Assembly: GCA_023105745.1 (NCBI GenBank)
Contig: JALGQZ010000003.1
Span: 47,572,196 to 47,636,195, forward strand
Source: Austropuccinia psidii
Taxonomy: Eukaryota; Basidiomycota; Pucciniomycetes; Pucciniales; Sphaerophragmiaceae
Direction: 5' to 3'
Length of the DNA: 64,000 nt
The translations under genes were made by a program, and so were the position numbers. Position 1 is the stretch's first letter. The number at the start of each line of letters is the position of its first letter. The notes under the pieces were generated by a model, which worked only from the letters and a program-made list of their open reading frames with translations, was not told the DNA's origin and did no database searches. Shown piece after piece: positions 4,139 through 26,780 of the stretch.

Positions 4139-4184
4139 CACCAGGGCATATCTCGTGTCAATTGTCAGCAATTGACTTCACATC
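4139..4184 (+). repeat. Left terminal inverted repeat, CACTA-like copy 1
   Basis: Begins CACCAGGG. By eye, 35 of 46 bases match the reverse complement of 26735-26780 and 39 of 46 match the left end of the second copy at 62391. Most differences are transitions at CpG positions. Confidence 0.9.
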
Positions 4185-4255
4185 AAGCAAACGTCAAGCA
4201 GGATAAAAGTCGAGCTCAGGTCAAGCAAAAATCAAGCGAACGTTGAGCACATGTC
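4182..4255 (+). repeat. Left subterminal repeats (TCAAGC motif)
   Basis: Four copies of TCAAGC, mostly within the context ACGTCAAGC, plus related GTCGAGC and GTTGAGC, are packed into about 70 bases directly inside the terminal repeat. The same cluster is present in the second copy at 62434-62508. Subterminal repeats of this kind bind the TnpA-type partner protein in plant CACTA elements. That role here is inferred. Confidence 0.7.
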
Positions 4256-5104
4256 CCACTCTTGTCTTACACCAAATCCTGTGACATCCACCAATATTGG
4301 TTCCCCTGTGCCTTCAACTCAGATTCCTCACCACCTGATCATCCCGCAACTGTCCGATGGTTGGTAAAAGTTACCCAATACCCGCCTGTTTGCACAAACA
4401 CACATCAAAGAGGTCCTTCAGCCAGTCTTGATGTAGGCGGGGGGTTTGACTCCACCAGGTCATTGTCATTTTGCAGATGACACTGGTAGAGCCCGCCCCA
4501 CAATACCGGGGGTGCCAGTGTGTGTGTGTGTGTGACGGGCACACCATGGCCAAATGATTTGTTGTCCTAATTTTGTGTAGCCATGAATCAGCTAGATCAG
4601 CAGGAGGGGGTGACATGGTTAGAGCCTGCTGCACAATGCAGTGGGTGCATGGGTTACACATGCACACAAAGGCAATACATGTGAGGGCCTAATGTCAGGT
4701 GGCATTGACCATTTGTGGGTGACACATGAAACCACTCTTGGCAGGTGCTCTTGCATGTGCATTGGCGGGTGCGGGTGCATTGGCGGGTGCAGGTGCGCTT
4801 GCGTGTGCATTGGCAGGTGTGGGTGCAGGTGCGTTTGCCGGTGCGCAAGGGCCGATTCCCCTTCCAACATGATGATGGCGCAGTTAGAAATTTTGGATGC
4901 TGTGAAAGGTGAGTGTGTGGGTCATTTGATCATTGAACTTGGCTTATACACACTGTACCCAATGTCAAAATAGTAAGTTCTTTGTGGCAATGTGAAATAA
5001 TGGGCTTTGCTTGTCACAACTACATGTCTCTGTCACTAAATTTTGAGGCAGTTATCTCACTAGCAAAATTGCTAATGAATCTGAGATATTTGCATTTTTG
5101 TAGA
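4256..5104. other. Subterminal non-coding region with G-rich array
   Basis: No supported gene. It contains a short GT microsatellite near 4518-4532. From about 4741 to 4852 it holds a degenerate array built on GCATTGGCGGGTGCGGGT. The corresponding region of copy 2 (62724-62912) has a longer version of the array. The flanks, such as the stretch from 4869 to 5104, are nearly identical between the two copies. Open frames across the array are compositional artefacts. Confidence 0.7.
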
Positions 5105-8100
5105 CTAAATATCATGAAATAACGGCTTTATCATTAGAAGCAGTCCACATGACAGAACTTTGTTATCATACAGTACACAGTTACCTTCTATTTCTTCTTC
5201 AGATATAATCAAGTGTCCATCATCAAAACCAACAGCTTTATAAATATTCAGATGCGGCCAATCTGGTAAGAAATTCACATCAATCTTCAAAGTTTTCAAG
5301 ATCAGGATTTATTGTTCAGTATGCTAGATGGCCCAGAGACTTTAAAAATGCTATTAATAATACAAAATCGTCATGAGTTGCCCCTCAGAAAACATATCAC
5401 ACTGTTTCTGACATTTTTGGATTCAGTTGAAAATATATGGTTCCCAATATTAATGTTTGAAAGTGGAAAATACCAAGGTGAGACAATCCTTGAAGTGGGA
5501 GGACTTGTGGATTGCACGGTAGTGTCTAAGCTGATCCAATCAACTATTTACCTTGTTGCATGAAAATTCTGTAAGTACTCAACCAGGCAATCAAAATTTT
5601 CTTGGTCATGGCGGGATGGCTTGTTATATTTATGGTGATTGAACAGGGCAGGTGGCTGTTATTCAAAAAGCTGTTTTATTTAATATGGCACGGATGGGGA
5701 TTTCAGGAGAACGGAAAGGTTGGAACATCGACAGATATGTTGAAGTAAGGTTTTATCTATATCATCTATTCAGAGTTGCAAGAAGTTATTCTTATTCAGT
5801 TCAGGTGTTTGATCAATGTGAATAGATTGATCTTATTAATTGACGTACATATTTTGTTATTGGTTGGCATTCTTGCAAATACTCCAATCAAGCGCGCATA
5901 ACCCCATGTGGCTGAGGCTTGTGCTGGGCCCCAACGTTGGAAGAGTTTGGGAATATGATCAGCAAAATGATTATTTGGTTTACTTTTCTGTTTTAGGAAC
6001 AGGTGTTGATTGGAAAGGCAGAATTTTTTTCCAATGTTCAGCAAATGCAGTCGCATCATCTATAGAAACAGTCCAACTTGTGGCAATTTTGATAGCACTA
6101 ATCAAATGGAATGTATTCTTGGTTAGTTCATTTTCAAGTTCTTCTGACTGACCCATTTTTCTTTTAATTTTGGCAGATTGGTGTACATGTAATGAAATCT
6201 GTTGACTAAGCATTAAAAATGGAATATAGACCTTATATAAGAGAACCCATTCAGTGGCTTTTAAGCTACCATGAGAGGGGGAAACCATGTTGCAAGGTAC
6301 TCTTGTCCATGATGAGGGAATTATCGTCTCAGATATGATTTGTCGGAGATGCTCCGGAGCCTCACCCTTGATCTGGTGATCACTCAGTGCAGTGATATCC
6401 AATTCAGAGGGGATTTCAGAAGTGGGGATGTAATCCACATCAAATGAAGGAATCTCTGCAGAACCACTAGATGGATGTTCCGTGTGAGGGGTGGGCATTG
6501 GGAAGTAGTGGGGAGTGGCTCATTTATTATTTTTGCTGCTTCTCTTCTCAGGGAGAAAGACTCTCTCAATGTGATTTTATCAAGAGAGCTGTTGGAGGTC
6601 ATGGAATCTGAGTCTCAACTGTTGGTGTCATTGGATTTCCTGCGGGACCTGAGGTAAATTTTTGATTTGGACTCTGGAATGCACACTTTGAAAGTTGCAT
6701 GATCCTTCAAAATTCCAAGTATTAAATTATGCATTATGTCAAGATTAACCATTCTGGTTGAATCCCAATACGGAAGGTCTTCTAAAATTGAATATCGCAA
6801 TCCATACTCAGAGAAAATGGCTTGTCTTTGTTGTGGGGTTGCCCGAAGCCATTTGGCAATGGTTGATTTATGATTTTGATATGAGCGTATGTAGTGAAAT
6901 TGAGGACCAATTTCTTTAATTTGAGCTTTGTGAATGGTGCCAAAATTACAAAAGTGGTTGCCTGAATGGGAAATAAATCCAGTAAGCTTGCGCATGCATG
7001 GCGACAACATCCGCAATGCCTGTGAGAATGGCAACATGGATAAAGGATCCTGATGGACCTGTTGAGGTGGGTGAAAAATGGTAACCTTGCCATAGCTCTT
7101 TGAGCTCCTTGATGAGTGGCATTAATAGGTAATTCAATTGAAGGGAAGTTGGCTCCTTTGGACCAGGGATGATTTGTACAACATAGACATTCTCTGGCTT
7201 CAATCTTTCACTTGGGGGGAGATTAAGACAAATAAGCATGATAGGTCCAATGCTGGCCAACTGGGTTGAATTTCCATGTGCATTAAACCAGTCCACATAA
7301 ATGGAGAAGGCCAATGCACCAGGAATGGACATGAATGGGGGTCATTGATATTTCTAGTACCAATGAGGCGTCTCCAGACCAACCCATCCCAGAAATCACA
7401 TTTTGGGGAACCTTTGGGAGTTTTGGATTGTTGATGTTGATGCAGAATTTCCATAATTCCAGCCTGCTGGAGAAATCTGGCAAGCCAATTTTTGAATGGT
7501 TGATAAATGAAATGTTTTGTTGGTATAAAACTTTGCTTCATGTTGGTTGTGTTTTGGGTTTAGGGTTGTAATGAATAGATGAATTTGCCTAATGATTGTG
7601 TGCAAGGGGGATCATGATCATTTGGGTCATTATGGCGTTGAAAGTGTGGTTGGTCAGTTGTGACTGATATAGTAAGGCCATTAATAGAGAAACATTGAGG
7701 ACAACATATATAGTTTTGAATCACTGGTTCCAATTGGAGATATTCAAATATGGTACTCGTATCTTGAGGTATATGGAATGCAGGAGTGGGGGACCACCGG
7801 AGGTTGAGATGCTGGACTTGATCAGCAGGTTTATGGTGGGGTTGAGAATGCATGAAGCCCTGCGGGGTATGTAATACCTTAATGATAGAATGGCAGATAT
7901 TATCATTCCAAGGTCCTGTGGGGGAAGGGTTTGACTGCTGCTGTATGGTTTCTGTGCAGTTGGATGGAGACCCGGTGCTGTGGAGAAGGTGCTTTGGGTC
8001 AATGGTGAATAATCAGCTGGGAATATTTGATCCAATAGAAGTTTTGGGCACTCATATCCTGATTCAGAAGTAGGGATGTTTGGAAGAGACTTGGGTGCAA

Positions 8101-8248
8101 TGGTTGATTTGAGCTTTTTAATGTGCTGTTTATATTGGAAAGGTGTGAAAGCAACTCCGTGCCTATCACCCTCAGGGGAAGAGTGTGTTTGAGTTGAGCA
8201 GTGTTGACACATGCATATACGCATTGAGGAATAGCGGCGGGTTGTCAT
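5105..8248 (-). pseudogene. Tnp2-family (CACTA) transposase, broken copy
   Basis: The transposase that would excise and insert the element. Reading on the minus strand from 8248 there is a Cys-rich N-terminus (CMCQHCSTQ). A second Cys pair follows (CCPQCFS, about 7690). The conserved Tnp2 core has the wording NVYVVQIIPGPKEP, KELWQGYHF and GIADVVAM (about 7190-7010), then PYWDSTRMVNLDIMHNLILG (about 6765-6700). After this comes a Ser/Pro-rich linker (about 6650-6400). The C-terminal domain includes RWGPAQASATWGY (about 5930). It is completed by an exon (5105-5765) ending in FHDI and a TAG stop. An 83-bp intron (5766-5848, GTACGT donor) matches the position and length of the intron in copy 2. 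The frame changes several times, so this copy is inactive. The match to Tnp2 (Pfam PF02992) is from memory of the family. Confidence 0.85.
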
Positions 8249-9198
8249 TGTTGCAGGAATTGGGAGTATGGTTGGTTTGTGTATAAATATCTATGGCTGA
8301 TGTGAAAGTGTTTAGGAGTGTTATTAATTGGAAAGAAAATTGAGTGATTATTTATGAGGGGGGAGATGATTTGAGCCATCTGAGAATTTTATCCCATTTG
8401 TAATGGTGTGTGAGCTGCAGCTGATACAGTGTAAAATGTCTCATCTGTATGGCAGAATTGGTTAGGAGTTTTATTGGGTAAAATGCCAAGCTGCTCAATG
8501 CTCATACATATTCTATTTTATTTACACATGGTGATACTGCGGTTTTAACCCTTGAGGGGCGTTCCAATAGGGATGTGTCAACATTGAATTGAGGGGATTG
8601 ACCTTCAAACCATGTATGCTGGAACGCCATTGTACATGGCTTAAACCTTATTACAGACATTACGATATAACTCTATTACAAAAGGGGTTGGAGTTCAGCT
8701 AAAGTCTTGGTATTTGGTTTGAGTGCAGCAGGCTTTTAATTGGTTGGAATGTGATTTGGATTGTATCGCCTTTCTTGAAAAGGTGATGTCTCTTTTGTGG
8801 GTAAATCCTTCATGAATATACCCCTTTACAGATGTACAATGCTGCGGAATTTCAATGCATATATTGGCAGTTTGGATAATTCACAAAATGTAACAATGGG
8901 GAGGCGGAAATGTTACCAAATATGATTACTTATGGATGATGGGTCCCCTTTGAGATCAAGGGAATATTACATTATATGGTGGTAGGCTGTGCAGGGTGGT
9001 TTCCGACAAAAGGGAGGATCTCAAGAGGAGCTAGGGAGGATTCTCCTAAAAAGAGGCTTATTAGACTTCCAATAAGACTCTTTTTGAAATATTCATAGAA
9101 TATCTCTATTCTAAATTTGAAAAGATTTCATCTCATATCACTCTATTTTATCATAATACTGAGGTGTTTTATCTAGTTAAAAATATTACTGTACTTTT
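8249..9198. promoter_or_regulatory. Divergent intergenic region between transposase and the 9199 gene
   Basis: About 950 bases separate two genes read away from each other, so this is the likely shared promoter region. A TATA-like TATAAATA lies at 8282-8289, just upstream of the transposase start. I see no open frame of note and no clear repeat. Nothing further can be assigned. Confidence 0.5.
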
Positions 9199-10810
9199 TT
9201 GGCCCTTATGTCATCTTCCAAGTCATATAAATCCCGTTCAGATTCTGTTCATGACTCAGATAGTGAATCTAGCATAGAATATGTTCAATCACAGTCACCA
9301 TTGAGTCCCAACATTCCTCTCACAACCCCTATCACATCCTCAATGAATGTATCAGGTCTTAACATTGATGTGGGAAATCCAAAGGCTCCAAATTCAAGCA
9401 CTTGGTCGATCCCAAATATTTCCGTCACTCCAATTCCCCCGAATCCCACTAATACACAAATGCATGTGTCTCAGGGGCCAGAAGGCACACCTCAAATCTC
9501 ATCAAACGCTAATCCCCAGTCAAAATTTCCATGTGTGTTCCTCCTTAATCCCAGTCGGAATCCAGTCGCATCCCAGGATCCCTTTGGCCAAAGTAAACAG
9601 CCAACCCTCAATATTCCATCAGGATCTCAGCCTCATGTGGGCAATGAAAGGCGCATGGATGGGGGGCAACAAAAAAGACCATTGGAGAAGGTAACTTGGA
9701 GTGGTCTGTCAGAGGGAAATCCAGGATTGACGCTTCATAAAAGTAAGTCATTTTAATTTTTGAGTATAACCCTTTTTTCAATTTGATATTTTTGTTTCAT
9801 GGGTTAGATATGGCACCTGAAGGTAAGTCAGTCCAATCTCAGGAGCCAATTGAAGATTGTGAGTATGACCAGTCTTCATTAATTTTTTGATGTGATAACT
9901 GATGATGTGCATGGCAGGTGATGAACTTTATGCATCTTCACCTCTGGTCCATAAAGAGAAAGTAACTGGGCGTCATCATCCATATGCCTCCAAACCAAGA
10001 ACAGCTCATGCCAGTTCATCAAGAGAAAAAATGGTGGATAATGAGGATGAGAACATGTCTCTGACTGAAATGGAAACAAATGATGAACCAAGGAGGGACA
10101 ATTTCACGGCGCATGAGCATGGCACTCAGTCAAATAGTGAGTTCACCCATCCTCAAATGCCCCTTGCCCAGAGTATGCTTGAACAATCTGAGGTCAGACA
10201 GCAAAGGAACCAGGCTTGTAAAGCTCACAATGTGGCAAAACGTTCAAGCCAGAAGGAGCAACAAAAATGGCTGAAAGCAGAACTTCCAGAGAATGTCCAT
10301 GGAATGAGATCAGCAGTACATACCCATTGCCTGTTCCTACTCAAAGTTAGGGATAAGGATTTTTCCTCACTACCAGCACCACCAAGCACAGAAGAGCATG
10401 AAATTGCAATTCAAGTGGCTGGTCATCTCGGATATGTCCCCAATGATGTTTTCAATGAGCCATCAACACAGTTTCAGTCTCAGGGTTTCCAAAGCTACTT
10501 CAAAAATGAGCTCCACAAGCTAGGACTAAAGCGATTCACTTGGGACTGGGAGAGCTCATGGCAAAATCTGTTCAATGAGCTGAGGTCTATGGTGTTTTAC
10601 CATACATTCCGTCTTGCACTTGTCAGCAACAAGTATCATCATTACTGTTGGAACAAGGATCATAATAACTATGGGGTTGTGGCGGCTTTAATGGAGCAAT
10701 ATTTAACTTATGTGAAAAGAGAATGGAAGTCTATTCAAAAGGATGCGGAGTATTTGGTTAAAAAGAAGGAGAATCAAAAGCTTGCAAAGATTCATCAAAG
10801 GGTTAATTAA
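9199..10810 (+). CDS. Unknown transposon cargo protein, three exons or more
   Basis: I do not recognise a named domain. The start ATG at 9199 opens a Ser/Pro/Asn-rich, probably disordered N-terminus (SDSVHDSDSESS). Exon 1 ends at 9742, followed by an intron 9743-9807 (GTAAGT...TTAG). Exon 2 is 9808-9858, followed by an intron 9859-9917 (GTGAGT...GCAG). Exon 3 starts at 9918, and the phase is kept across both joins. Exon 3 holds a basic helix (SSQKEQQKWLKAELPENVHG) and a region rich in Trp, His and Tyr (FTWDWESSWQNLFNELRSM). It ends in a Lys-rich segment and TAA. Codons resume at about 10836 (DYVHTCERRCEWCDMAKF) after a possible intron but hit a stop near 10943, so the 3' end is probably decayed and true coding may have reached about 11240. 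It faces the transposase gene head to head. Confidence 0.55.
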
Positions 10811-11559
10811 TGTATCTCTTCTTCATTGTGAGGAAAGAATGATGATGATCTAGTTGATTATGTGCATACCTGTGAGCGCCGTTGTGAATGGTGTGATATG
10901 GCTAAATTTCTCATTCTAGCATCACAATTCAATGACCCTTGAGTATGCTCAGATACTGAGGAGGTACTGGAAAATGGCCGTCAAGTTTACCGCAAAGTGG
11001 GATTATTCTGGCGCTCCCAGTTATTTAATGAATTGGTAATTGCATTAAAAAAAAGGGTAAAAAAACTATTGATAGATTGCCAGAATTACGATTGACAGAT
11101 GATGGTGATATTCTGGAAGGCGTATCATTTCAGGTATTTTATCAAGATTGGCTCAAAAGCTATAGTAAGATGCAGACTAGCGCCCTCAAAATACTTGACA
11201 TGCCAGCTATTAGGCCAAATGGTGATGCTCTGCAATAACTTAGTAATATAAATGTATAGCACCGTTACACATTAACATTTTGTGAATTATTTGTGCAGGT
11301 GTAATACAATCTGATTATTTTGTCTTAAAGATGCAACAACTTGATAAATATGTCAGAATATAGACAATATGAGTTGGAATGTATCACCGTCTCCCTTAGA
11401 AATAATACTCTATTGCTCATTTTCATTGAGGAAATATTGAAGGAGTTTGATCCAGCACATGGTGTTCATAATTGTGGACCTGTGCCAGGGTGCGCAGGTG
11501 TGATCAACTTGGTCAAACGCAAATTATATAATATCAGTAAGGCTCACACAGTTAATGTT

Positions 11560-13936
11560 TTTTTCTTTTCTTGGACCTATTGGTGTTTGGAAAATGGCAT
11601 TTCCATAAGGAAGGATTTTAGAATAGCAATACAATCAGGGTCAAAGATGAGCTTGAAAGGTACCTTCCGCATGTTGATCTCAACTGAATAAGGAGTGATA
11701 TAGTGGATGACCTTTACTGGTTGTTGTTGGCCAATACAATGGAGTCGATCAACAGCCTGAGCCTCAATGGCTGGGATCCAATTGGGCTCCTGGAAATGTG
11801 GATGTCAGGGGCCGCAAATCAGGGTAGAATCTTGGGGGTCCCCTCACCATTCAATAGACCGTATTAGCACAAGTTATATTGAGGCCAGGTCAAGCTGCCG
11901 CAATGGATGCAATCAGTACTTCACATTCAGGATTATTGAAGAAATTCTCCAGTTCCTTCTCCTGTACTCGTGCTGTAATTGTTCCATCAATTAGTGCTGA
12001 AAGCATAGAGTGATGGGCAAGTGCAATACCAATTCTACAATATAAAAAAGTCAGATGGATTCAATTGGTAATGGATGCGTATTAGAATTAACACACAAAC
12101 CTAGAAATTGCATCCATTGGGTATAAACCACCGATTTGGTTGGACCACACCTTGTTTGTTTGTCCTTCATTACGCTTTGTGGGAGGTGTGCAATTTTACT
12201 ACTCATCATGCATGCTTCCACATCCACAATAGTTTGTGTGATTTGCCCTTGGGGTCTTCCAAATCCGCCTCTGCAATTGTGTTAAGCATGATCTTATGGT
12301 AACAACATATTTGCAGCTTATTAATATTTCTGAAAAATTCTCCTGGTCCTTTGCTTTTGGATGATAGGAATTCTTCATATATTGTGGAATATTCTTGCTG
12401 CATGGTTGGGTTGAGTGGGAGCAGCTCATAATGATGGCTAATAGTGGGGAGGGATTTGAGATGTGTTGTTTTGGTGTGGCGCAAAATTAAATGCCGTAAT
12501 TCCAAATACAAAATATCATTGCAACCTTTGGAAAGACTACTCAGGATGAATGGTGACCAGTTATCTTGATCGGCGCTTTGGGGTTGAGTGATGAACGATA
12601 TTATGCCCAAAAAGTCATAAATGGTGTTGTGAATAGGTGGGCCCATTGAACATATTCAACGGGATGAAAGGAGGCTATTAATGGCACGGCTATTCGCAGT
12701 ATATTGAGAGCAAATATAGCTGTAAGATGGGGCAAGGGTTATTGGATATAAAAGGTAATTTTAATCATTTAAGCTCAGCCACTCACTGTGCTTCATCCGA
12801 AATTATAGAATGCCAATTGATTTGAAAAATGAATGATGTAGAGGTATTGGTTTGCTTAAATTCTTGGGTGATAGTATTGTAAGAAGTGATGATGATATCA
12901 TATTTTAAGATGTCAGCCTCGGATAATGAGTGACGAGTGGGACCTTGGTAGATTTTGGCATGCAGCGCTCCAGCCTGAGCATGCTTGGATATTTCTGATT
13001 GCCAGTTGCGAATTAAGCGAGGGGGGCAGATGATCATGGTGGGTTTGGAGCAATGGGGGTTTTCAATCATCCACTCCTTGGAGGTACCAATTAGAGAAAT
13101 GGCCTGAATGGTTTTACCTAATCCCATATCATCCACAAGCAGTCCTCCAAGAGGGGTATTGGTCGAAAGGGATTCAAATGAGCTAATGACCTTATTTGTA
13201 ATGATGTGCCTGGTATTAAAAGTGGATCCTGGGGGTGAGGTGGCCCAAAGGTTACGGGCTGATTGGCCATTGGGGATTTCTCGATCCCAGAGAAAAGCTA
13301 GTCCGGTCTTTTGATGAGGGAGCAGGGGGGTTTGAATAATGGCATGGGGAGGTCTGATCCACTGGGTAATTGTATCAGTTTTTGCTTGGAAATCAATGAT
13401 GAAACAGCAGGATATGAAGCTGGCGTTTAGTTTGAAGCGGAAAATGTAGGAGTAAAGAGTTGACATTGACTATGAGTATTACAGTCATATTCTTTGGGCA
13501 TTTTAAGCTTGAATTCTTGTGTTTGAAAGCTTTCCATTATGAATAGAATGTTTGGATACCATGTGAAGAACATCAATGATAGATTGGGTTTCTGAGATGA
13601 GGAGGGATCATTTGCATCAGTCATAAATACTCCCTCAACAAATAATATTTGAGTAGGATTGGATTGGCAATTTTCGATCCATGCCCCACCAGGACCACAG
13701 TGCATGAAAGTTTTTGGTGCCCCAAGGAATGGTCTGAATGTTTGGGAAAGGGTTCCAGGGATAGAGCCAATAGCACGCTGGTGATTGGGGAGATATACAA
13801 ATATGCTGTGTTGATTGTGCCATACGATAATCCAAGAAGCTAAGTGCGAATTGTGATGATTTAAGGTTATATCACTATTTATTTGAATACAAATATTAAT
13901 CATCCCAATGCAAAGTGGTTGTGAAGGGGTTGACAT
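11560..13936 (-). pseudogene. SNF2-family ATPase/helicase (Rad5/HLTF-like), broken copy
   Basis: A DNA-translocating ATPase of the chromatin-remodelling SNF2 superfamily. The minus-strand frame from 13936 gives an N-terminal region. A shift near 13440 then leads to the ATPase core, with LLPHQKTGLAFLW, the Walker A box DDMGLGKT (about 13130), CPPRLIRNWQSEISKHA, and a DEAQ Walker B at about 12785. After a gap or intron comes PPIHNTIYDFLGIISF (about 12640), then RHLILRHTKTTH. Near 11750-11690 on the same strand lies the helicase motif VI with EAQAVDRLH and GQQQPVKVIHYI. Frame changes, an altered TGTP motif (reads MGPP) and the break at 12646-12783 show it is degraded. It is divergent from the spacer upstream of the Zn-cluster gene. 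Confidence 0.8.
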
Positions 13937-16567: not shown

Positions 16568-17915
16568 ATGTCCTGCACTTTATGCACCAAGTGGGGTATC
16601 CCCTGCATTTGTTCCTCGATGACGACAAACGCTTGTGATGCTTGCCAACAAGCACACAAGAAATGTTTTTTTTTGTCCGCCCCTTCCGACCACAAGGCCA
16701 GAGGAGTTCTCTCCCAAGACGTCCCCGCGAGGACTCCTTTGTGGCCGACAATGATGAAACCATATCCAAGTGCAAATGGAAAGCGGGACCTCAAGCAGGC
16801 CAACAGGAACAATTCCGGACGATTAGCCCTGTCCCCTCAAGCATCAATTTGTCCACCCCCCCTCCTAGGCCACCATCCAATGGTCACTTCACTCCTTGAC
16901 CTGAGCAAATTGATTATCCGGCCAATGAAGGATGGCGATGGCAAGACGACATTCAAAATTCGGCCAATCTTCACCATGTCTTGTGACTAATGGGATTTAA
17001 ATGCCAAAGTAAGTTTTCTTTCTCCTCCTTATCTCATTTATCTTCATGCAATAATACTGACTTTTTCCATTACTCATAGAACAAAACCCCCTGAATCCCC
17101 CCTGACAAGACTCTCCCATTCCTAGTTTGCCTCGCAAGCAAGCCCCGCGGCAACCCACTCCAGGCCTGAGTGGCACCCAATGGTCAGAGGAATCATTACG
17201 CGGTAAGAAGCCAAAGTTTCATTTCATTTTCACTTTCACTTTCAAGTCAAGTTAACTGACTCTTACTCCTTTTTTAGAACCCTCCCGATTTGAAGAGCCA
17301 CCTATTCCTGGCCCGAGTCCATCCTCCCAACCACCTGAGGACAATGTGGCTTGTGAGCCAGAACCTGAGGTGGCTCCTAAGCAATCCACGGAGGAACCTT
17401 TTTGTAAGTCCCAATTTCACTTTTTTAACTCTACTCAACTTTTCCTCACCCCTCCTTTGACCATCTCCAGCTCGTCCCGCCACTCCCCGCTGCATAATTA
17501 TCATTGACGATACCCCCGTTGGATCCCCCCCTCTCCCTCCCCGCCTTGCCCACCTTCCCATTCTGTCCCCCCCCTTCACTCCGAACCCTGTTCCCTCCCC
17601 AGTGCCCCCGAGAACCCCAACGCCTCCTCCCCCCGGGTGCAAAGCCCCTCTTATTCCCACGATGACGCTCGCCAGGAATTCACTGACTTACGACCGACTT
17701 TGATGATTCCTCAAGCCATCCTCCACGAATCGATCAACCAAATCTTGTTGGAGCATTGCCGCTTGCCCCACATGATTCCTTTCGTGGATGCAACTCATCA
17801 AAATGAGATGCACCGGGAATTGCGGGAGGAACTAAACTCCCTCCTTGCCCAGGCACTGGAGGCTTATCCGAAGGAGGACATCACAAGGATAGTCTCGAAA
17901 TACTTAGAAAAATAA
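16568..17915 (+). pseudogene. Zn(II)2Cys6 zinc-cluster cargo protein, frameshifted
   Basis: The N-terminus from the ATG at 16568 has Cys at residues 3, 6, 13, 23, 26 and 33. The spacing C-X2-C-X6-C-X9-C-X2-C-X6-C fits the fungal GAL4-type binuclear zinc cluster, a DNA-binding domain. A Pro/Ser-rich middle follows, and the last exon (17471-17915) ends with an amphipathic acidic segment (EMHRELREELNSLLAQALEA). Introns with good sites are 17203-17277 and 17404-17470, and exon 2 probably starts at 17090. Frames change near a T run at about 16667-16676 and a C run at about 17628-17634, consistent with slippage indels, so this copy is broken. It is a candidate for the element's own DNA-binding partner, since CACTA elements need a second protein that binds subterminal repeats. 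That role is inference. Confidence 0.65.
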
Positions 17916-17975: not shown

Positions 17976-17981
17976 AATAAA
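17976..17981 (+). terminator. AATAAA polyadenylation-type signal after the Zn-cluster gene
   Basis: AATAAA lies 61 bases after the TAA stop at 17915, in AT-rich sequence. The position suits a 3'-end signal. Confidence 0.4.
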
Positions 17982-18332
17982 GTATTTGTATCCAATGATT
18001 GTTATTTTCCATTTCTATTACATTCTTTGCTCACATGAAATTATATTTTACTCAATGGTTCAAATATTGTATTATGTGAGAAAAATTTTTATAAGTGCCC
18101 CACCAAAATTTCGAGTGAGTATTTGTTTGTGTGACCCTCTTTTGCCAAAAATGCGCCAATAGTCGCCGTTACTGTCTCCTATATTTTCTTCTTCCATGAT
18201 TTAGAGCCATATCAATTCTTAACTGTAAAAAAGTGGGAGGTTCCCGCAAGTGAGGAATCCACTCCAGATTCGTGAGACATTGCCTTTCCTATGGTCACAC
18301 GCTATTAATCTTAGTCATGTATTGAATTGTTT

Positions 18333-19020
18333 AAATTGTGGGGAACCTTCACAAGCATAAGGATTGGCGTGTGAGTTTTCGGGAGCCTGCACAGGCGTAA
18401 GGATTGGCATGTGAATTGTTGGGAGCCTGCACAGGCGTAAAGATTGGCGTGTGAATTGTGGGGAGCCTGCACAGGCGTAAGAAATTGTCAGCATTGTTGG
18501 CAACCTTCACAAGCGTAAGGCTTGGCGTGTGAATCGTCGGAAGCCTGTACAGGCGTAAGGAATTTTTAGAATTTTTGGGAGCCTTCACAAGCATAAGGAT
18601 TGGAGTGTGAATTGTCGTGAGCCTGCACAGGCATAAGGATGGGCGTGTGAATTGTTGGGAGCCTGCACAGGCGTAAGAATTGGTGTGTCAATTGTCGGGA
18701 TCCTGCACAGGTGTAAGAAATTTTTAGCATTGTGGGGAATCTTCACAAGCGTAAGGATTGGCGTGTGAATCATTGGAAGCCTGTACAGGCATAAGGAATT
18801 TTTAGCATTTTTGGGAACCTTCACAAGCGTATGGATTGGCGTGTAAATTGCTGGGAGCCTGCATAGGCGTAAGGATTGGAATGTGAGCTGTCGGGAACCT
18901 GCACAGGCATAAGGATTGGCGTGTGAAGCGTCGGCAGCCCGCATGGGCATAAGGAACTTTTAGCATTGTCGGAACCTGCACAAGCATAAGGATTCGCGTG
19001 TGAAGCATCGGCATCCTGGA
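18333..19020. repeat. 40-bp minisatellite, about 17 copies
   Basis: Tandem units of about 40 bases built on GAGCCTGCACAGGCGTAAGG followed by ATTGGCGTGTGAATTGT. Every few units the second half is replaced by GAATTTTTAGCATTGT, giving a higher-order pattern. The unit contains a short palindrome (CCTGCACAGG). The open frames seen across it are repeat translations and not genes. It lies between the Zn-cluster and oxygenase genes. Confidence 0.85.
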
Positions 19021-19041
19021 CAAGAGAAACAAACCAGGACA

Positions 19042-19069: not shown

Positions 19070-19259
19070 ATCCACTTCACCCCTTTTTCATGTGAGACAC
19101 CCCATCTCCCGCACTTAAAACCATCCAATCCTCGTGTATAGTGTCCTCTGCCTTACCCCACCATTATTTACCCAACACACATGCAAATCTCCTCATTCTT
19201 TGAATTGGCATGAGATTGTATTACCATCCCTGATTTGATAGCCCTCTCTCTTGCCAATC

Positions 19260-20575
19260 TCATAATAGCCATGGCTTTTTTGCTAACATGCTTGAGCATT
19301 GTGCGGACATACCCACTAGTGTCATGCTTTTGTTGTCCTGTGCTGGATCAGTATAGTGAACAAATGTACTACTGGCCCACACTACCTGAATGAGCCCATG
19401 ACAATCGGATAGATCAATCCAAAAATGCTCATTTGGGAAAATCAATTTTCCACCTGTACACCCCTTTGACGCATCTCTTTGAATTTGGCAGGTCCGCTTA
19501 TCAGCTTGAAATCACCATCCAGAAGCATACAGCAATGCATCCTTATCAAGATGAGGTGAGTTTTTGAATTCATTCATGGTGAAAGTGAGTGCGGACGCAA
19601 ACTCGCATGCACCCTGATTTGCGGGAATATTGCCTTCATAGTTGACTTGATCAAAAGACCCAACCCCCAATGAGTTGTAGCAATTTTGAATGTTTTCAAA
19701 TAAATTATCCCCAACATATCGTAAGGATTGGCCTAGAATGCAACCCACTGGGCTAAGATTGGCTCCTCGGTTCCGCCATTCATCTTTTGCGTTTTCAATT
19801 TTGCCGACACTTCCATGCAGACCAAATTGTTCATTCTGCGTGCTGCATTTGCGCCACTCAATTGCAAACATAAATCCCTCCAGTAATGCTCCATTTGTTG
19901 CAATCGGGTTGGTGAATCTCTTTTCGCAAAATAAGAATTGTGATAATTCATCCCATTGATTGACCTTGACTTCACTCATTTTTGTGAATGGTCGGAATTC
20001 GACAAGGGCAATGAGTAATCCAGCTGAAGAGAAAATTGCCACACGGCCAAAGTGAATGCGTTTGATCTGATTGACATCCACAATCCTCCGAATTTCACTT
20101 GGGGTGATATTTGCTGATACTGGCATTGAAATTTGTGCTGTTGGGCGAGAGGAGGAAAACAACCTATTCATTCAGGTCATTTTGCGCTCATTTGTCTTTT
20201 GGGATCTCCCACTATTCCCGAGTGGTTGAGGGATCACTATGTGTTGAAGCAGAGAAGATATCAGATACTGCTTCCTGCCATTTGAAGCTAAGGAGTTTTG
20301 AGTCCAGAATGGTGCCCAATGCACAAGGAGCTCTATTCGGAACACATCCTTTGACTTCCCTGTTGGAGCCCACATGACATTAGCTTGATCTGAAGCGACT
20401 AAAGCCAATGTTCTCCCATGGAGCCCAATGAGGGTGCCACAAAAATGCGGAAGCCTATATATATATCTATATATATAGGCTGAGAATAAGTGAGCCACTC
20501 ACACTTTCCTTCCTCAGCCTGACGCTTTCTTGCGAGCTCCCTTTTACGCTCTTTTCCTTTTTTCATGAATGGCAT
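19260..20575 (-). pseudogene. Tet/JBP-like 2OG-Fe(II) dioxygenase, with nonsense codon
   Basis: A member of the Fe(II)/2-oxoglutarate oxygenase superfamily, whose Tet/JBP branch oxidises 5-methylpyrimidines in DNA. A probable first exon (20575 to about 20504) encodes a basic, NLS-like N-terminus (KERKRELARKRQ) with a GTGAGT donor. The main frame (20171-19512) includes VDVNQIKRIHFGRVAIF, LTFTMNEFKNSPHLDKD with the metal-binding H-X-D (residues 207-209 from 20171), and LLYASGW. A TGA at 19512-19514, probably from TGG, interrupts it. The same frame then continues with GGKLIFPNEHFWIDLSDC, the distal metal His in STFVHYTDPAQD, and a basic residue before MTLVGMSAQ where the 2OG-binding Arg/Lys is expected. 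It stops at 19260. I recall this family as the rust-expanded Tet-like group (Pfam PF20515). The substrate is not shown by sequence. Confidence 0.75.
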
Positions 20576-21151
20576 GCTTGCAGCAGAAAATGAAATGAAA
20601 CCAAATGATTACTGATTTATTAATATCACCTAAATTGAATTGCGTTTGATGAATCTTTTTTAATTGCGGCTAAAAAGAAAGATCACACCTGACCTTTGCG
20701 AATTCGCAATCTCAAATACCTGAACCTGAAAATTTCAGTGGATAGTGCATTATTCAATTTGACATATTGATTTTCCAATGCAATCACTTTCCAATCCAAC
20801 CATTTGGAATATCGCAAGCACACGCAAAGGCAATATGCATCCTGCTGCAGATCCCTAGTAATCCTAGTCCTCTTGAAAGACACAGGAGCATTTGGCCTAT
20901 TATGGGCAGGCAGGAAGTGATAAACGCGACCTCCCGCAATGCCCCGCGTGTGCTACATGGCGCACAACTGCCTGACTTAGCTTGTGTCTTGTCGGAGTAT
21001 TTTCAAAGATTTACGGAGGCATGCCGCCGTACAATTACTATTGGTATTCAGACTGTGGCATCCGGGCAGTAGTAGGATAGGAAGTCATGATTATTAAATT
21101 AATAAATAACTTTGCAAAATTCAATTACAATCTATCTAGTACAAAGCTAAT
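20576..21151. other. Spacer between oxygenase and membrane-protein genes
   Basis: No supported gene. It contains the palindrome at 21012-21031. Short open frames on both strands (about 66-101 codons) lack recognisable features. Confidence 0.5.
21012..21031. repeat. Third member of the GGTGGC palindrome family
   Basis: TACGGAGGCATGCCGCCGTA has nine-base arms around AT with one mismatch, and the same central GGCATGCC as 19042-19069. Confidence 0.75.
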
Positions 21152-23356
21152 CTAAAACGGGTCAATCCTGGTTGTGAGTTTAGCTGACCTGGGTACAGTC
21201 AAGGTGACCTCATCACTTGAACCAAGACCGCGCTTTGCCACCCAGGAATCACCAAAGTCTAATACTAAGCATTGTGAAAATTCAAATCTAAGAGGTACAG
21301 TGGGGTTAAAAGACTCTGATGAGAAGAAACCTTTATTCAGTAAATTACATATATACTTATTAGTACGTAGCCACACTTGTTCCACTAGATTTTTACCCTC
21401 TGAAAGTTTTTTGGAAATGTCAATTAGTGATAAAGCCCCTTTAACTGAGCTTGTTCTCCAGTCATCTGAGAATACCATCAAACCACAAATCCCCGCCACA
21501 CAGAATGCCGCTAATATACCATAGAAAATTTGATATATTCCAAGATTCTTGTGACACGTCAAAAGATCTTTGATGGCCTCATTTTTCTTTGAGTTCGTTA
21601 GTTTTCCTTTGATGCCATTAACTTCAACCTTTGTATGTGCACGTACCATGTTGTACGCAATCATCAAATGGATAACTGTATCCATTAGATCCTCCAGGTT
21701 CTTGTGCGGCTTTGTGGATATCTCATTGTCAGCCCCGCCACCTTCAATGCTGAGTTGGGTTTCATGTTGCTTCGATTTACTCAAGCAGGAGGCAAGGTAT
21801 TCAACTGCTCCCCATTCGAGTCCAAGAGGATCGGTCAAATTTGATGTTGGTGCAACATATGGTTTGGGTGCAATCACATCGTATGAGACTCAACTAATGG
21901 ATTCAAACATAACATTTGCCCAAAAATATTTAACTGGATTAGCGGGGTAAAGAAGGCTCTGAACCATTTCGAAGAAGGAGTTTTCAGATTTCCTTCATCA
22001 ATTTGAGATTCCAAATGTTGTGATCAAAAAACGCTTCTCTTTCTGTTGGCTTAAAAAAATGTAACCCTGTATATTGCAATTTATATCACCAGTCAACAGC
22101 CAATCATCAAGTATCATGCACAAAGATAAAACTCACCTGCCATCTCAAGGTCCTCCAGCCAAGCCAACATTTTAAGCTCTCGGTTACTGATCACCTTAAT
22201 ACCAATGGGCAGGAATGTATGAGCATCCTTTGTTGGTAAATTGTACCATAGATTTTTGTATATACTATTGATATTATCAAGCCCCCTTTTCCATGATTGT
22301 TGAGTAATATTGGAATGATAATTCAAAACACCTGCAAACTCTTCTATGCAGGATAGAAATATTCCTTGAAAATTACCAGACAATGACACTTTGGGCTCAG
22401 GGTCAGGAATTATATCAGTCATATCTTGTCCCATTGTATCATGTTTAATTGTCTCCCTTTCTTGAAAGGCTTGAATATTCCGAGGAGAGGCAGGAGGGGT
22501 TTCATCATGGATTGTTTCATTCGGTATTGGGGGGCTTTCAGTATGTGGAGCCTCATCATGGATTGTTTCATTGAGTATGGGGGGTTCAGTATGCGGAGTT
22601 TCATTATCAATATGGTCCCCTTCAACATTAATCCTTTCATCACCTTGATCCCAAGAATCCTTTGTGGCTTCAAAGGTACGGCGTTTTTTGTTTGTTTTTT
22701 TGGTCGCATGTATATTTGGTCTTTTTCCTAATCCTTCACCTGGAAATCCAATTACGACTCGAGATCCTTCAGGTAGAGATTCTCCCACCTACACACCTGC
22801 CCATATATTGGAAGCAGCTATTTTTATCAATTATGTTTTGAATTAGTAATGGACTTACCGTTCAAATCCATTTTGAGCAGGCTCATGGCTTCAGCAATCT
22901 TTTGACGCACATAATCAGGAATTTGCCTATAATTTTGAATTTTTTCAAGCCTTGGGATTGTTTGAGCAATTTTGGAGACAAATTGTTCCTTGGATATAAT
23001 TTCCACCTCCCCACTGAAAATTACATCATCTTTCCCATCATCTTCTGTCGGTGCACAAGGTTCAACAGTCTTTTCCTTCTCTTAACTTTTAAAATTTGTT
23101 TTCTGAGAGCTTGGAGGCTGACCTAAAATAAAGGCTATGACACAAAATCAGGTATTGAGAGATTAGAAATATTCAAGATGAATGCATACTCACATTCTGG
23201 AAGAACTGGTGGATCTTGATTATCTTCATGTGACTGGCTCTCTACTTCAATGCCTAAGTCACGACTACTGGCCATATCAGAGATTTCACTTCCACTCTCT
23301 GGGGCTGAAGTTGGTCGTTCATTGAATTCAGTTGAATTTCCCGGGGTTTGGGCCAT
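21152..23356 (-). pseudogene. Unknown multi-exon cargo protein with one membrane segment
   Basis: I do not recognise a named family. The minus-strand start is at 23356 (MAQTPGNSTEF). Exon 1 is acidic and Ser-rich and ends at a GTGAGT donor near 23195. Exon 2 (about 23122-22860) includes EVEIISKEQFVSKIAQTIPR and ends at GTAAGT. Exon 3 (about 22790-22135) starts VGESLPEGSRV and contains a basic KKTNKKRRTF patch and two imperfect ETPHTEPPILNETIHDE-type repeats. It ends at GTGAGT. The last exon runs to 21152 and holds a hydrophobic segment (about 21560-21490, GILAAFCVAGICGLMVF) that reads as a single transmembrane helix. In-frame stops near 23085 (TAA) and 21893 (TGA) break it. Correct splice sites at each join support a real ancestral gene. 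Confidence 0.6.
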
Positions 23357-24049
23357 AGCGGAGGTAGTTTATTAGGCATATAAATGGTGAAAAGTTGATC
23401 GATAACCCAATTGAAGATTGTAGAATAAAAAGATGCAAATTTAAGAAAAAAGGTGCAAGTAAAATAAGTTTAAAATAATTGATTCTTTTTGAGGTTATAT
23501 TGGAGAATTTTGGCAAGTTTGAAAGAAGTTAAATATCAATTTAAAGCATTTTAAGAGTTATATAATATTCTAAAAAAAATATTTTAGAACCAAAAGCTGA
23601 CCAAAATAAACCTGCACATCAACAGACTTGGTATCTTCTATTGAAATTGTATTGCATTTGGAAAAGATGATTTGTCAGGAAATTCAAGCAGGTGATGTGT
23701 TGCAAATTATTACATATCATTCAAATGAAATGACTTCCCTGTGAGAAATTGAATAAAGTTGACTAGTGAGAAAACTACTAAAGTCAACTTTTGAACTATT
23801 CAACGCTCATGAGGTAAGGACTAAACAAAGTGTTCCATTTGAATGATATGAAATAAAATGGTTTTGTCGGCAAAACAGGAGACACAATTCTTGTCTTAAA
23901 TAGTCCAGTAATTAGGTTTTAATTTGTGAGTCTCATGATTTAAACCCTAACCACAACATTGTGAATATACTGACCAATTTCCCCTTAGGTCCTGTTGGCA
24001 AGGAAGGCCACTCAGGATATTTCGGCGATTGCGTTCATCGTGTATGCCA
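23357..24049. other. AT-rich spacer with a 138-bp inverted-repeat unit
   Basis: No gene is seen. The only structure I find is the inverted repeat at 23713-23850. Confidence 0.5.
23713..23850. repeat. 138-bp nested hairpin, MITE-sized
   Basis: Outer arms of 15 bases, CATATCATTCAAATG and CATTTGAATGATATG, are exact reverse complements. Inside them AAGTTGAC and GTCAACTT form a second stem. The size and nested symmetry suit a tiny miniature element or a structured RNA, but no target duplication is evident. Confidence 0.5.
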
Positions 24050-24263
24050 ACAAGCCACTATACACTATGGATGTAGTACGGAAGCGTAAGGATAAGTGGT
24101 GTTGGGAGCATGTCAGGAGGGCACTCCACAAGCATAAGGATGGGCAGCAGTGTCGGGAGGGCATTACACAAGCATAAGAATAAGTGGTGTTGGGAGCATG
24201 TGGGGAGGGCACTCTGCGAGCATAAGGATGGTAAGCAGTGTTGGGAGGGCACGCAGCAAGCGT
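24050..24263. repeat. 51-bp minisatellite, left part
   Basis: Tandem units of roughly 51 bases containing AGCATAAGGATGG, AGCAGTGTTGGGAG and GGGAGGGCACTC. The array is interrupted by a solo LTR and continues at 26165. The last five bases (AGCGT, 24259-24263) are the left target duplication of that LTR. The core CAAGCGTAAGGAT is shared with the 40-bp array at 18333. Confidence 0.8.
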
Positions 24264-26164
24264 TGTAAGATGTGACTATGAAATTGATGATAATATCACT
24301 ATCAATCAACAGTACTGTGTCTGTTTTTATGAAATATAATAATAAGATATTATTATAACCACAATTAAATAATTAAAGAATTATTTCTTTCAAGTGTTAA
24401 GCACTACTAGTGATTTTAACAGTGAGCAAGTAATTTCCTACAAGAATCAATTACAAGAAGATTTTAATAATAAAACTTCTTTTATTAAAATAATAAAATT
24501 ATTTTAATATATAATTATCTTTTGCAAGAATAATTATAATGATAATTCTTGAAGAAAACTAATTTTAGAAAAAAACTTTAAGAATTAAAGATAAATCACT
24601 CACTAATATTCCAAAGAGCTTATTGAAAGATAAGATAGAGAGATTTGACATGGAATTGTGGATTTTAAGGATCAAAATGGATTTATAACAGTATTACAAC
24701 AATATATAGCTGGATTCTATGATTTTACGTCTTTCTGATTGATTCTGAAAGATTTAAAACACTTAAGAATAGCTATAACTTATACTTACTTGTTGCTAAT
24801 AATGATTTGAATGATAATAAGATGATGATGATGTGGAAAAAAAAGAAAGAAGAGGCTTCTTTTAAGTAAACAACAGCTCAAAGAGGCGTGCCATGGATCA
24901 AACTGGAAAACCAGCGAGTGCGAAAGAAATAAAACTTTTTGGATTATTGATTGCATCATCTGTTGTCACGTAAGATTGTCATAATTACTTAATTGATGCT
25001 TTTATGTGACTACCAACCCCAATATGGTTAAGAATAAAAGGAGTAAAATCTGTAAATCTTCTTTTATTCCAAAATAATCATTGATTTCTCAAATTTATCA
25101 ATGTTATTGCCAGTTTCATCACAGGTTGTAATTACTGTGAATTTTTGAAGATTCAGTGTTTCACGTAGAATAATCAAAAATGGACTGTAAGTAAACCATT
25201 TAATTGTATTAGTAAAACTGTAATTCTTTTTTGTTGTACCATAGATAATACAGTTCTCCATTAGTCCTGAAAGTTTCAGAAAGATTCATTAAGAATTGTA
25301 TTTTTAATGAATTTTTGACGTTTTTACCTCATTTCTACGTAGAATTCCAAATATCAGTGTTTCACTGGTTGCTATGAGGTAAATCAATGGATACAAGTCC
25401 AAAAAGGGTTTTAATTACTCTTTTGGGGTTTATCCATGGAAATTCATTAAGAATTGACATGTTTACAGGAGTCTAAGTAGCTTTTTACCTCCTTGGCATG
25501 TCAAAATAGCAGGTTATTTGCTATTTTCTTAAGATTGACAGTAGTTGTGACATGGTAACCAAGTTCCCAAAAGGTTCTAGTTTACCAATTAGGCCAAGAT
25601 CAGCCATGGATCCAAGCTTTCGAGCTGTCCATGCCTCTGAGGCCTCAGAAGTTGGGTACCCTGGCTCTCTTTGATGTCTTTTGTCCCCCTTGCCTAATTT
25701 TCATGTCAAAATAGTAATTATGGGTGTACCAAAAGTCCATGTAAGAATTCCATGATATTAAGTGCTCAAAACATGCATAACACTATTCTGAGTGTATATG
25801 TAACATGGGATTTCTCACATTCCCATTATTTTGGTGTGAGTTTAAGAAAAACAAAATTTTTCATGGATCTTTTATGTGGTATTGATGATGTGGTATTGAA
25901 GTATTTTCCATTTTTCCACATCAAAGAGTTAATTTGAGCTTATTCACTCTATGGAGCTACCCTAGGTTAATTTTAGTGTAGAATCCAAATCTGGTCTTAA
26001 ATCCATGGATTTACTTACTCAATAAAAAGTTATTCATCTTTTCTGAAATTAAAAATGATGAATTTTGGATATATGCATGACTTATGAGTTATGCATAATT
26101 AAAAATTTATTTTTAAGATAATTGTGGCCTATTAGGGTATGTAAAATATACCTCAAGGCTCACA
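24264..26164 (-). mobile_element. Solo LTR of the GypB family, 1901 bp
   Basis: Begins TGTAAGATGTGACTATG and ends CTCAAGGCTCACA on the plus strand. It is flanked by AGCGT on both sides (24259-24263 and 26165-26169). It is similar over its whole length to the LTR at 58715-60636, which belongs to a minus-strand element, hence the strand given. No internal region accompanies it, so it is an LTR-LTR recombination remnant. It contains the same minus-strand open frame of 65 codons (25064-25261) seen in the other two GypB LTRs. Confidence 0.92.
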
Positions 26165-26480
26165 AGCGTAAGGATGGTAAGCAGTGTTGGGAGCATGTCG
26201 GGAGGGCACTCCACAAGTACAAGGATGGTAAGCAGTGTCGGGAGCATGTTGAGAGGGCACTACACAAGCGTAAGGATGGCTAGCAGTGTTGGAGGCATGT
26301 TGGGAGGGAACCACATGAGCATAAAGATGGTAAGGGCGGGGGTGTGAAAGCGTAAGGATGGCTAGCAGTGTTGGAGGCATGTCGGGAGGGCACCACGTGA
26401 GCATAAAGATGGTAAGTGCGGGGGCTTGAAAGCGTAAGGAGTGGTGAGGACGGAGATGGGGGGGCAGTGTCGGAGTCTCA
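26165..26480. repeat. 51-bp minisatellite, right part
   Basis: Continuation of the array at 24050-24263. Two units at 26162-26263 are each 51 bases. Later units degenerate and shift to a GGGGGTGTGAAAGCGTAAGG form. Confidence 0.8.
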
Positions 26481-26734
26481 TCTGGAGGGCAGTGCGGCGC
26501 ATAAGCATGCGAAGCATTGGGGCGGATTAGGTGGGGATGCGGAAGCCAATGACGTGAAATTCCCCAAACATTGCGAATAGTGTTGAAATGGGTTTGGGCT
26601 TTGAGTGACATTCTCATGTGACACATGTGACAATTGACGTTTTCTTGACGCTGACGTGACGTGACCCACTAAATCCAGTGACTATAAAGTGACACTAGTG
26701 CTACTGAAGCAAGATTTTATACTGACCGCGGTGC
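26481..26734. repeat. Right subterminal region of CACTA-like copy 1
   Basis: No gene. From 26609 to 26670 it has repeated TGTGACA, TTGACG and GACGTGACGTGACC motifs. These are related in reverse complement to the ACGTCAAGC repeats of the left end. This balances the left subterminal cluster. Confidence 0.65.
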
Positions 26735-26780
26735 GACGTGAAGTCAATCGCCAATGATTGATGCGAGATTCCCCCTGGTG
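26735..26780 (-). repeat. Right terminal inverted repeat, CACTA-like copy 1
   Basis: Ends CCCCCTGGTG. Its reverse complement begins CACCAGGGGGAATCTCG and aligns with 4139-4184 and 62391-62436. Confidence 0.9.

What the first reader, a model, noticed from the sequence alone, without database searches (positions are those of the whole stretch)
4139..26780. A 22.6-kb CACTA-like transposon carrying a set of chromatin/DNA-modification genes
Ends CACCAGGG/CCCTGGTG, 46-bp inverted repeats, a 3-bp ACT duplication and exact repair of the host retroelement frame define the borders directly from sequence. Inside, besides a Tnp2 transposase, are a SNF2 ATPase, a Zn2Cys6 protein, a Tet/JBP-like oxygenase, a membrane-segment protein and an unknown. 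Tet/JBP genes riding on fungal DNA transposons are known for KDZ-type elements in basidiomycetes (Iyer and colleagues). A Tnp2/CACTA vehicle with this gene set in a rust looks like a separate system. The inferred logic is that the element brings its own remodeller, demethylation enzyme and DNA-binding factor to counter host silencing.
Basis: partly seen in the sequence, partly recalled or inferred. Interest (0 to 1): 0.92.

Follow-up and report, generated by a model that had tools for sequence, protein, structure and literature searches.

The report
Giant CACTA transposon with TET and SNF2
In the myrtle rust fungus a jumping gene of about 20.7 kb, present in roughly two thousand copies, regularly carries genes for a DNA-demethylation-type enzyme and a chromatin-remodeller-type motor beside its transposase; the copy in this window is a decayed one.

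Summary
Window 4139-26780 is a complete CACTA/EnSpm element of Austropuccinia psidii (46-bp TIRs, ACT duplication, gypsy frame rejoined without it), 22,642 bp, 1,901 bp of it a later solo LTR. The genome has 4,098 exact copies of the 24-bp end (reversed control 0). Among the first 100 listed, 33 convergent pairs lie within 50 kb: none under 20.3 kb, 15 at 20.4-21.5 kb. Of those 15, ten were read at both ends (10 of 10 with 3-bp duplications), 15 of 15 carry TET, and 10 of 10 examined carry SNF2. Order and strand are fixed. Cargo dN/dS resembles that of the transposase (0.46-0.54); for SNF2 the controls overlap. The window copy is dead: transposase, SNF2 and TET have in-frame stops. TET on EnSpm elements in rusts is already published (Kojima 2025). 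New, as far as searched, are the Rad5-like SNF2 and Zn2Cys6-type gene as standing genes, the lack of short derivatives in the sample, and the selection data. The anti-silencing mechanism is inferred; CpG decay shows that copies are not lastingly protected.

The parts
4136..4138 (.). target site duplication ACT, left
   Evidence: repeated at 26781-26783
4139..4184 (+). left terminal inverted repeat (CACCAGGG...)
4738..4846 (.). left subterminal tandem repeat (12/24/48-bp units)
5799..8290 (-). Tnp2/CACTA transposase gene, interrupted in this copy by stops and frame changes
   Evidence: PF02992 1.8e-12; Plavaka PF18759 2.9e-5, below cut-off. The first 558 aa are open in two sampled copies, r91 and r150
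9208..11235 (+). gene of unknown function, at least three coding stretches (9208-9753, 9899-10807, 11032-11235); exon ends not settled
   Evidence: no Pfam family above cut-off
11580..13936 (-). Rad5-like SNF2 ATPase gene, five exons; first stop after 371 codons in this copy, more further on
16568..17912 (+). Zn2Cys6-type (GAL4-spacing) protein gene with proline-rich middle; exon ends not settled
   Evidence: cysteine spacing; no Pfam match
18324..19022 (.). internal tandem repeat (40- and 236-bp units)
19196..20171 (-). TET/JBP-like (PF20515) dioxygenase gene; in-frame stop at 19512-19514 between HxD and the presumed distal His, frame change near 19280
21155..23356 (-). gene of unknown function, several exons, NLS-like stretch; weak Pfam matches below cut-off
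24082..24252 (.). right subterminal tandem repeat, part 1
24264..26164 (.). nested solo LTR (TG..CA) with 5-bp duplication AGCGT; not part of the original element
26161..26440 (.). right subterminal tandem repeat, part 2 (51- and 82-bp units)
26735..26780 (-). right terminal inverted repeat (...CCCTGGTG)
26781..26783 (.). target site duplication ACT, right

Best explanation
It is one decayed copy of a large, recently amplified CACTA/EnSpm transposon family of Austropuccinia psidii. The family's usual gene set is a Tnp2 transposase, a TET/JBP-type dioxygenase, a Rad5-like SNF2 ATPase without RING or HIRAN, a Zn2Cys6-type protein and two proteins of unknown function, between CAC..GTG ends with subterminal repeats. 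Shown: ends, 3-bp duplications, gene set, order and strand in the sampled copies, end counts, and constraint on the cargo similar to that on the transposase (weakest for SNF2). Inferred: the cargo is an anti-silencing kit. The Zn2Cys6-type or an unknown protein binds the element's repeats, the SNF2 motor opens or moves nucleosomes, and the TET enzyme oxidises 5mC there, giving a window of expression and transposition before the host re-methylates the copy and it decays by CpG loss. The lack of short derivatives in the sample suggests that the kit works best on the DNA that encodes it (in cis).
For: 4,098 exact 24-bp ends, reversed control 0. Of the first 100 ends, 33 convergent pairs within 50 kb, none <20.3 kb. 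3-bp duplications in 10 of 10 TIR-defined elements and in the 3 of 6 SNF2-ranked copies in which both ends were read. TET in 15 of 15 and SNF2 in 10 of 10 examined TIR-defined elements. 14 SNF2-TET pairs on the same strand 6.5-7.06 kb apart (window copy included), against a mean of 1.03 pairs of any kind within 20 kb after shifting. One copy lies inside another copy of the element with a 3-bp overlap, showing the empty site. dN/dS at CpG-free codons: Tnp2 0.47, plus gene 0.47, SNF2 0.54, TET 0.47, minus gene 0.46. In 10 of 15 TIR-defined elements the 329-aa TET stretch has no stop and no frame break, in one more from residue 4. The host is reported to methylate CpG preferentially in TEs (PMC12774611, passages).
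Against: No activity, expression or methylation data were available here. CpG sites inside the element decay strongly (22-38% of CpG cells lost against 1.6-2.1% transversions in the genes, 3.6% in one intergenic part), and per transversion the decay is not lower than in the nested LTR (9.0-19.0 against 7.7, the LTR on 71 cells only). SNF2: dN/dS 0.54 (0.33-0.79) overlaps its controls 0.72-0.73, and without CpG masking it is 0.53 against 0.55-0.65. Only 4 of the 7 copies whose motif VI was read keep both its arginines; the window copy, c5 and r91, the one copy with a fully open SNF2 frame, lack the second. Of five listed SNF2 hits on C1 below 29 Mb only 2 lie inside an exact end pair (5 of 6 for TET). 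The selection sample is at most 9 related copies, so pairs are not independent. The window copy is dead.
Confidence: 0.58

Rival explanations
1. The extra genes are passengers: host genes picked up once by a CACTA element and copied along without function.
For: TET genes are held to move passively between rust transposons (Kojima 2025). Constraint on SNF2 is not clearly above its controls and a motif-VI arginine is missing in several copies.
Against: TET in 15 of 15 and SNF2 in 10 of 10 examined TIR-defined elements; constraint on TET and both unknown genes as on the transposase; no shortened copies among 33 pairs. SNF2 and TET are large families here: 7,188 and 4,604 first-look candidates, 150 of each scored.
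Confidence: 0.17
2. The SNF2 and TET genes serve replication or repair of the excision site rather than silencing: a Rad5-like ATPase for damage tolerance at the gap, TET for modified bases there.
For: The SNF2 is nearest to RAD5 in the PDB (1.5e-54; DDM1 2.9e-36), and several listed relatives are named RAD5 or SMARCA3-like.
Against: RING and HIRAN, found in Rad5/HLTF (recalled), are not found by Pfam. I know of no such role for TET (recalled).
Confidence: 0.15
3. Composite: TET and other genes belong to a second transposon nested in a plain CACTA element.
For: The window copy does hold one nested insertion (solo LTR), and TET genes ride on many rust transposons.
Against: Gene order, strand and spacing agree in the sampled copies and a 20.4-21.5 kb unit recurs between the ends with 3-bp duplications.
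Confidence: 0.03

Closest known systems
TET-positive EnSpm (CACTA) elements of Puccinia striiformis, Kojima 2025 (PMC12730594; main text parts 1-4 of 7, sections 26 and 34, two term searches)
   Same: CAC..GTG ends, 3-bp duplications, transposase with EnSpm and Plavaka similarity, PU-type TET gene, rust host. Related EnSpm families are mentioned from A. psidii, so this family may be among them.
   Different: SNF2 has 0 occurrences in the main text; no such ATPase, Zn2Cys6 gene, copy number or selection test is in the parts read. Supplementary tables could not be read.
KDZ elements (Kyakuja, Dileera, Zisupton) with TET/JBP genes (Iyer and colleagues 2014: nothing seen, not held; as summarised in PMC12730594)
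   Same: Fungal DNA transposons carrying TET/JBP genes
   Different: Different transposase; 7- or 8-bp duplications instead of 3
Maize En/Spm with TnpA (via PMC10398659, passages)
   Same: CACTA superfamily; an element-encoded protein linked to demethylation and activation of the element
   Different: TnpA is a DNA-binding protein (recalled), not an oxygenase; no SNF2 or TET gene (recalled)
VANDAL/VANC anti-silencing (PMC10398659, passages and listing abstract)
   Same: Sequence-specific anti-silencing by a transposon-encoded protein
   Different: Plant MuDR-type elements, no TET or SNF2 (recalled)
Rad5/HLTF SNF2 ATPases
   Same: Best solved relative RAD5; helicase motifs I, II, III and V in sampled copies, motif VI in 7 of them with both arginines in 4
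   Different: No RING, no HIRAN by Pfam; mostly 27-37% identical outside A. psidii; thousands of candidate copies

Membership tests
CACTA/EnSpm superfamily | Ends 5'-CAC..GTG-3' | tested here: met
   (CACCAGGG or CACCGGGG, not the literal CACTA)
CACTA/EnSpm superfamily | 3-bp target site duplication | tested here: met
   window, 3 copies, 10 of 10 TIR-defined elements
CACTA/EnSpm superfamily | Tnp2-type transposase | tested here: met
   PF02992 4e-15 on a natural 558-aa stretch
CACTA/EnSpm superfamily | Subterminal repeats | tested here: met
   window; matched in the three copies with both ends, r31, r121, r150. Binding by an element protein not tested.
CACTA/EnSpm superfamily | Second, TnpA-like DNA-binding protein | tested here: inconclusive
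   Two unknown genes and a Zn2Cys6-type gene are candidates; no Pfam family above cut-off
PlavakaB | Ends CATCA..TGATG, 2-3 bp duplication | tested here: not met
   ends differ; Plavaka Pfam match below its cut-off
KDZ with TET | 7- or 8-bp duplication, KDZ transposase | tested here: not met
   3-bp duplications, Tnp2 transposase
TET/JBP dioxygenase, PU type | Tet-like 2OG-Fe(II) domain | tested here: met
   PF20515 7.4e-46, profile positions 3-210 of 211, on P0002, an A. psidii relative; the PU type itself was not tested by a tree
TET/JBP dioxygenase, PU type | HxD and distal His of the iron site | tested here: met
   HxD pattern in 76 and a presumed distal-His pattern in 36 of 120 A. psidii proteins, many of them fragments; H207 invariant, D209 at least 90% in 32 aligned. 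The window copy stops before the distal His.
TET/JBP dioxygenase, PU type | Double-stranded beta-helix fold | tested here: inconclusive
   prediction failed, mean pLDDT 33.2
TET/JBP dioxygenase, PU type | Oxidation of 5mC | not testable with these tools
   needs an enzyme assay
Rad5/HLTF subfamily | SNF2 helicase core | tested here: met
   PF00176 3.8e-53, PF00271 1.5e-14 on r91; RAD5 best in PDB
Rad5/HLTF subfamily | RING finger between helicase lobes and HIRAN domain (recalled) | tested here: not met
   neither found by Pfam at E<=0.01 in two proteins
Zn2Cys6 (GAL4-type) proteins | C-x2-C-x6-C-x5-12-C-x2-C-x6-8-C (recalled) | tested here: met
   window copy; in the DNA of nine other copies read by eye, r150 lacks one Cys and r61 has a stop there. 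No Pfam match for the window protein.

The most novel reading that the evidence does not exclude
A eukaryotic transposon has built its own complete, cis-acting chromatin-opening and DNA-demethylation machine (DNA-binding factor, SNF2 motor, TET oxygenase), kept under selection as a unit; because the machine works on the DNA that encodes it, only full-length copies amplify, which would explain why no deletion derivatives turned up and how a 20-kb element reached about two thousand copies in a gigabase fungal genome.
Probability: 0.32. Interest if true: 0.85.

Novelty: new variant of a known kind. Interest (0 to 1): 0.63.

Why it matters
TET-carrying transposons were known. Here the TET gene travels with an SNF2 ATPase and a Zn2Cys6-type gene as a fixed set in a family with about two thousand pairs of ends, so the idea that transposons carry whole anti-silencing kits becomes testable with existing HiFi methylation and RNA data of A. 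psidii. The absence of short derivatives in the sample, unusual for CACTA elements (recalled), points to a cis requirement that a full census can test. It also names a concrete contributor to the gigabase genome of this rust: 4,098 ends / 2 x 20.7 kb is roughly 42 Mb, about 4% of the assembly (an estimate, not a measurement).

Tried and rejected
Locus-tag co-occurrence of TET and SNF2 in the fragmented MF-1 proteome, on the 120 TET and 119 named SNF2 proteins listed: 2 same-contig pairs against 0.53 expected, P about 0.1, too weak; replaced by the whole genome. TET of the window against PDB sequences: no relative (best E 0.31). Structure of TET from a 32-row alignment: mean pLDDT 33.2, not used, no fold search made. 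Idea that the motif-VI arginine of the SNF2 is lost family-wide: rejected, 4 of 7 copies read keep both arginines; but several do not (see evidence against). Idea that TET lowers CpG decay: not supported; the high CpG content (O/E 0.58-0.62 in three complete copies against 0.00-0.13 in their flanks) is explained as well by youth. SNF2 relatives in other rusts: among proteins of 384-1223 aa (7,992 candidates scored), the 120 listed of 1,914 hold 10 from A. psidii (66-85% identical), then no row named from a rust, though many rows bear no organism; the rest are mostly 27-37% identical, two short matches 43-46%. Unannotated transposon genes would be missed. A distant-SNF2 search of the own genome did not complete.
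Full report
1. What is there. The finding's borders are right. The element is 22,642 bp; 1,901 bp of it is a solo LTR (24264-26164, duplication AGCGT), so the element proper is about 20.74 kb, the size of its relatives. It sits in a Ty3/gypsy element whose RT/RNase H frame is restored when the insert and one ACT are left out. The genes are Tnp2 (-), an unknown gene (+), SNF2 (-), a Zn2Cys6-type gene (+), TET (-) and a second unknown gene (-).

2. Where it comes from. The best TET relatives are A. psidii MF-1 proteins at up to 90% identity over the whole query; all 120 listed of 375 hits are named A. psidii. For the SNF2, 119 of 120 listed of 365 hits are so named, one has no name. The window lies at C3:47572196-47636195 of a 1.015-Gb assembly of 84 contigs.

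3. The SNF2 exon has 7,188 first-look candidates; the 150 scored (window copy included) are at least 87% identical and 127 of them have no stop. The TET stretch has 4,604 candidates; of the 150 scored, 144 have no stop. These are the best-scoring copies, hence biased to good ones. Six copies at ranks 2, 31, 61, 91, 121 and 150 of the SNF2 list were fetched: all six are collinear with the window element as far as the 30-kb stretches and their insertions allow. Two are uninterrupted, 20,786 and 20,608 bp; r31 is 23,152 bp with the same LTR family inside. Their duplications are AAA, ATG and ATT. r31 lies inside another copy of the element. Three more copies, chosen because SNF2 and TET both ranked high there, agree. 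In these nine copies SNF2, TET, the plus gene and part of the Zn2Cys6-type gene are found in 9 of 9, Tnp2 in 8 of 9 and the minus gene in 8 of 9; the misses (r2, r91) are stretches that run into insertions or end before the gene.

4. An independent view from the ends. A 24-bp end pattern has 4,098 exact matches, reversed control 0. The tool lists the first 100 (C1, 0-29.1 Mb). Of 39 adjacent convergent pairs, 33 are within 50 kb: 15 at 20.4-21.5 kb, 2 at about 23 kb, 9 at 30-33 kb, 7 at 35-45 kb, none below 20.3 kb. The 30-33 kb class fits one roughly 10-kb LTR element inside, as seen in r2. Ten of the 15 pairs of 20.4-21.5 kb were read at both ends: 10 of 10 have a perfect 3-bp duplication. 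TET was found at the expected place in 14 of 15, and in the fifteenth at the place for the other orientation, in a 400-bp slice. In 10 of 15 the 329-aa stretch has no stop and no frame break, in one more from residue 4; of the rest one matches to residue 295 without a stop, one has a frame break, one a stop, one was seen only in part. Against this, of the gene hits that fall on this stretch of C1 from the two lists of 150, 5 of 6 TET but only 2 of 5 SNF2 lie inside an exact end pair; the pairs cover 3.2% of the stretch. Exact patterns miss mutated ends.

5. Linkage. 14 SNF2-TET pairs (the window copy is one) on the same strand at 6.5-7.06 kb, and one in opposite orientation at 18 kb, against a mean of 1.03 after shifting. 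With a more diverged TET subfamily, 10 further pairs within 25 kb, 8 of them at 7.0-8.8 kb, against 1.12. Four SNF2-Tnp2 pairs at 5.9-6.1 kb and four Tnp2-TET pairs at 12.5-13.7 kb, with two and one more same-strand pairs at 16.9-18 kb, against 1.06 and 1.07.

6. State of the genes. In the window copy the TET frame has a stop at 19512-19514, between HxD and the presumed distal His; four A. psidii relatives align through it at 85-90%. Transposase and SNF2 have several stops and frame changes. Open natural stretches exist for single genes: the first 558 aa of Tnp2 in r91 and r150 (both are broken before or in the C-terminal part), SNF2 699 aa in r91, TET in r121, r150, c12 and c5. I did not look for one copy intact in all genes.

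7. Constraint. Over up to nine copies without the window copy, dN/dS is Tnp2 0.52, plus gene 0.40, SNF2 0.53, TET 0.47, minus gene 0.42; controls in a wrong frame or antisense 0.73-1.03 for the others and 0.65 and 0.55 for SNF2. At CpG-free codons 0.47, 0.47, 0.54, 0.47 and 0.46, controls 0.72-1.65, for SNF2 0.72-0.73 with an interval of 0.33-0.79. So constraint is shown for TET and the unknown genes and only suggested for SNF2. The Zn2Cys6 gene aligned poorly (dN/dS 0.53, but transversion ratio 1.17).

8. Methylation footprint. CpG O/E is 0.58-0.62 in three complete copies against 0.00-0.13 in their flanks, and 0.43 in the window copy against 0.05 and 0.11 in the host gypsy. A. psidii is reported to methylate TEs at CpG and to lose CpG by deamination, younger TEs being richer in CpG sites (PMC12774611, passages). 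Inside the element 22-38% of CpG cells are decayed while transversions are 1.6-2.1% in the genes and 3.6% in one intergenic part; per transversion that is 9.0-19.0, against 7.7 in the LTR. Copies are thus methylated and decay after insertion, and TET gives at most a passing advantage.

9. The SNF2. A natural 699-aa copy has PF00176 and PF00271 and no RING or HIRAN, is nearest to RAD5 in the PDB, and outside A. psidii the listed relatives are far. Motif VI keeps both arginines in 4 of 7 copies read; r91, the open one, lacks the second.

10. What is known. TET on EnSpm/CACTA elements of rusts is published. I found no report of an SNF2 gene on a CACTA or TET-carrying transposon in the listings and the term search of PMC12730594; of the papers listed I opened only PMC12730594, PMC12774611, PMC12210899 and PMC10398659. 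The library lacks most subscription journals, Iyer 2014 included, and supplementary tables were not readable, so overlap with a named family is possible. For maize Spm, an element protein (TnpA) is linked with demethylation.

11. Verdict. A real, abundant, multi-gene CACTA family; a new variant of a known kind; mechanism plausible and untested.

Noticed in passing
window 24264-26164: Solo LTR (TG..CA, 5-bp duplication AGCGT) nested in the element; the same LTR family recurs in or beside other copies (r2 with a full element of about 10 kb, r31, r61), and 9 of 33 end pairs on C1 have the length expected for one such insertion.
   Followed up: partly
G000:C3:47643125-47643823 (7 kb beyond the window end): Another SNF2 copy of the same family, 92% identical, close to this window.
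   Followed up: no
G000, TET copies of the P0117 type: A second TET subfamily, mostly with open frames of 439 or 473 aa (8,701 first-look candidates, 112 scored), lies at the same place relative to the SNF2 where both were listed, so the element family seems to have at least two TET lineages.
   Followed up: partly
G000, Tnp2 matches with open frames of about 797 aa: Other Tnp2/CACTA families score better against PF02992 than this one; none of them lies within 20 kb of a listed TET, but the TET list was limited to 150.
   Followed up: no
window 1-4135 and 26784-30000: Host gypsy region with extreme CpG depletion (O/E 0.05 and 0.11).
   Followed up: partly
window 23468-23650: About 180 bp present here and missing at this place in r31, r121 and r150; origin not examined.
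   Followed up: no
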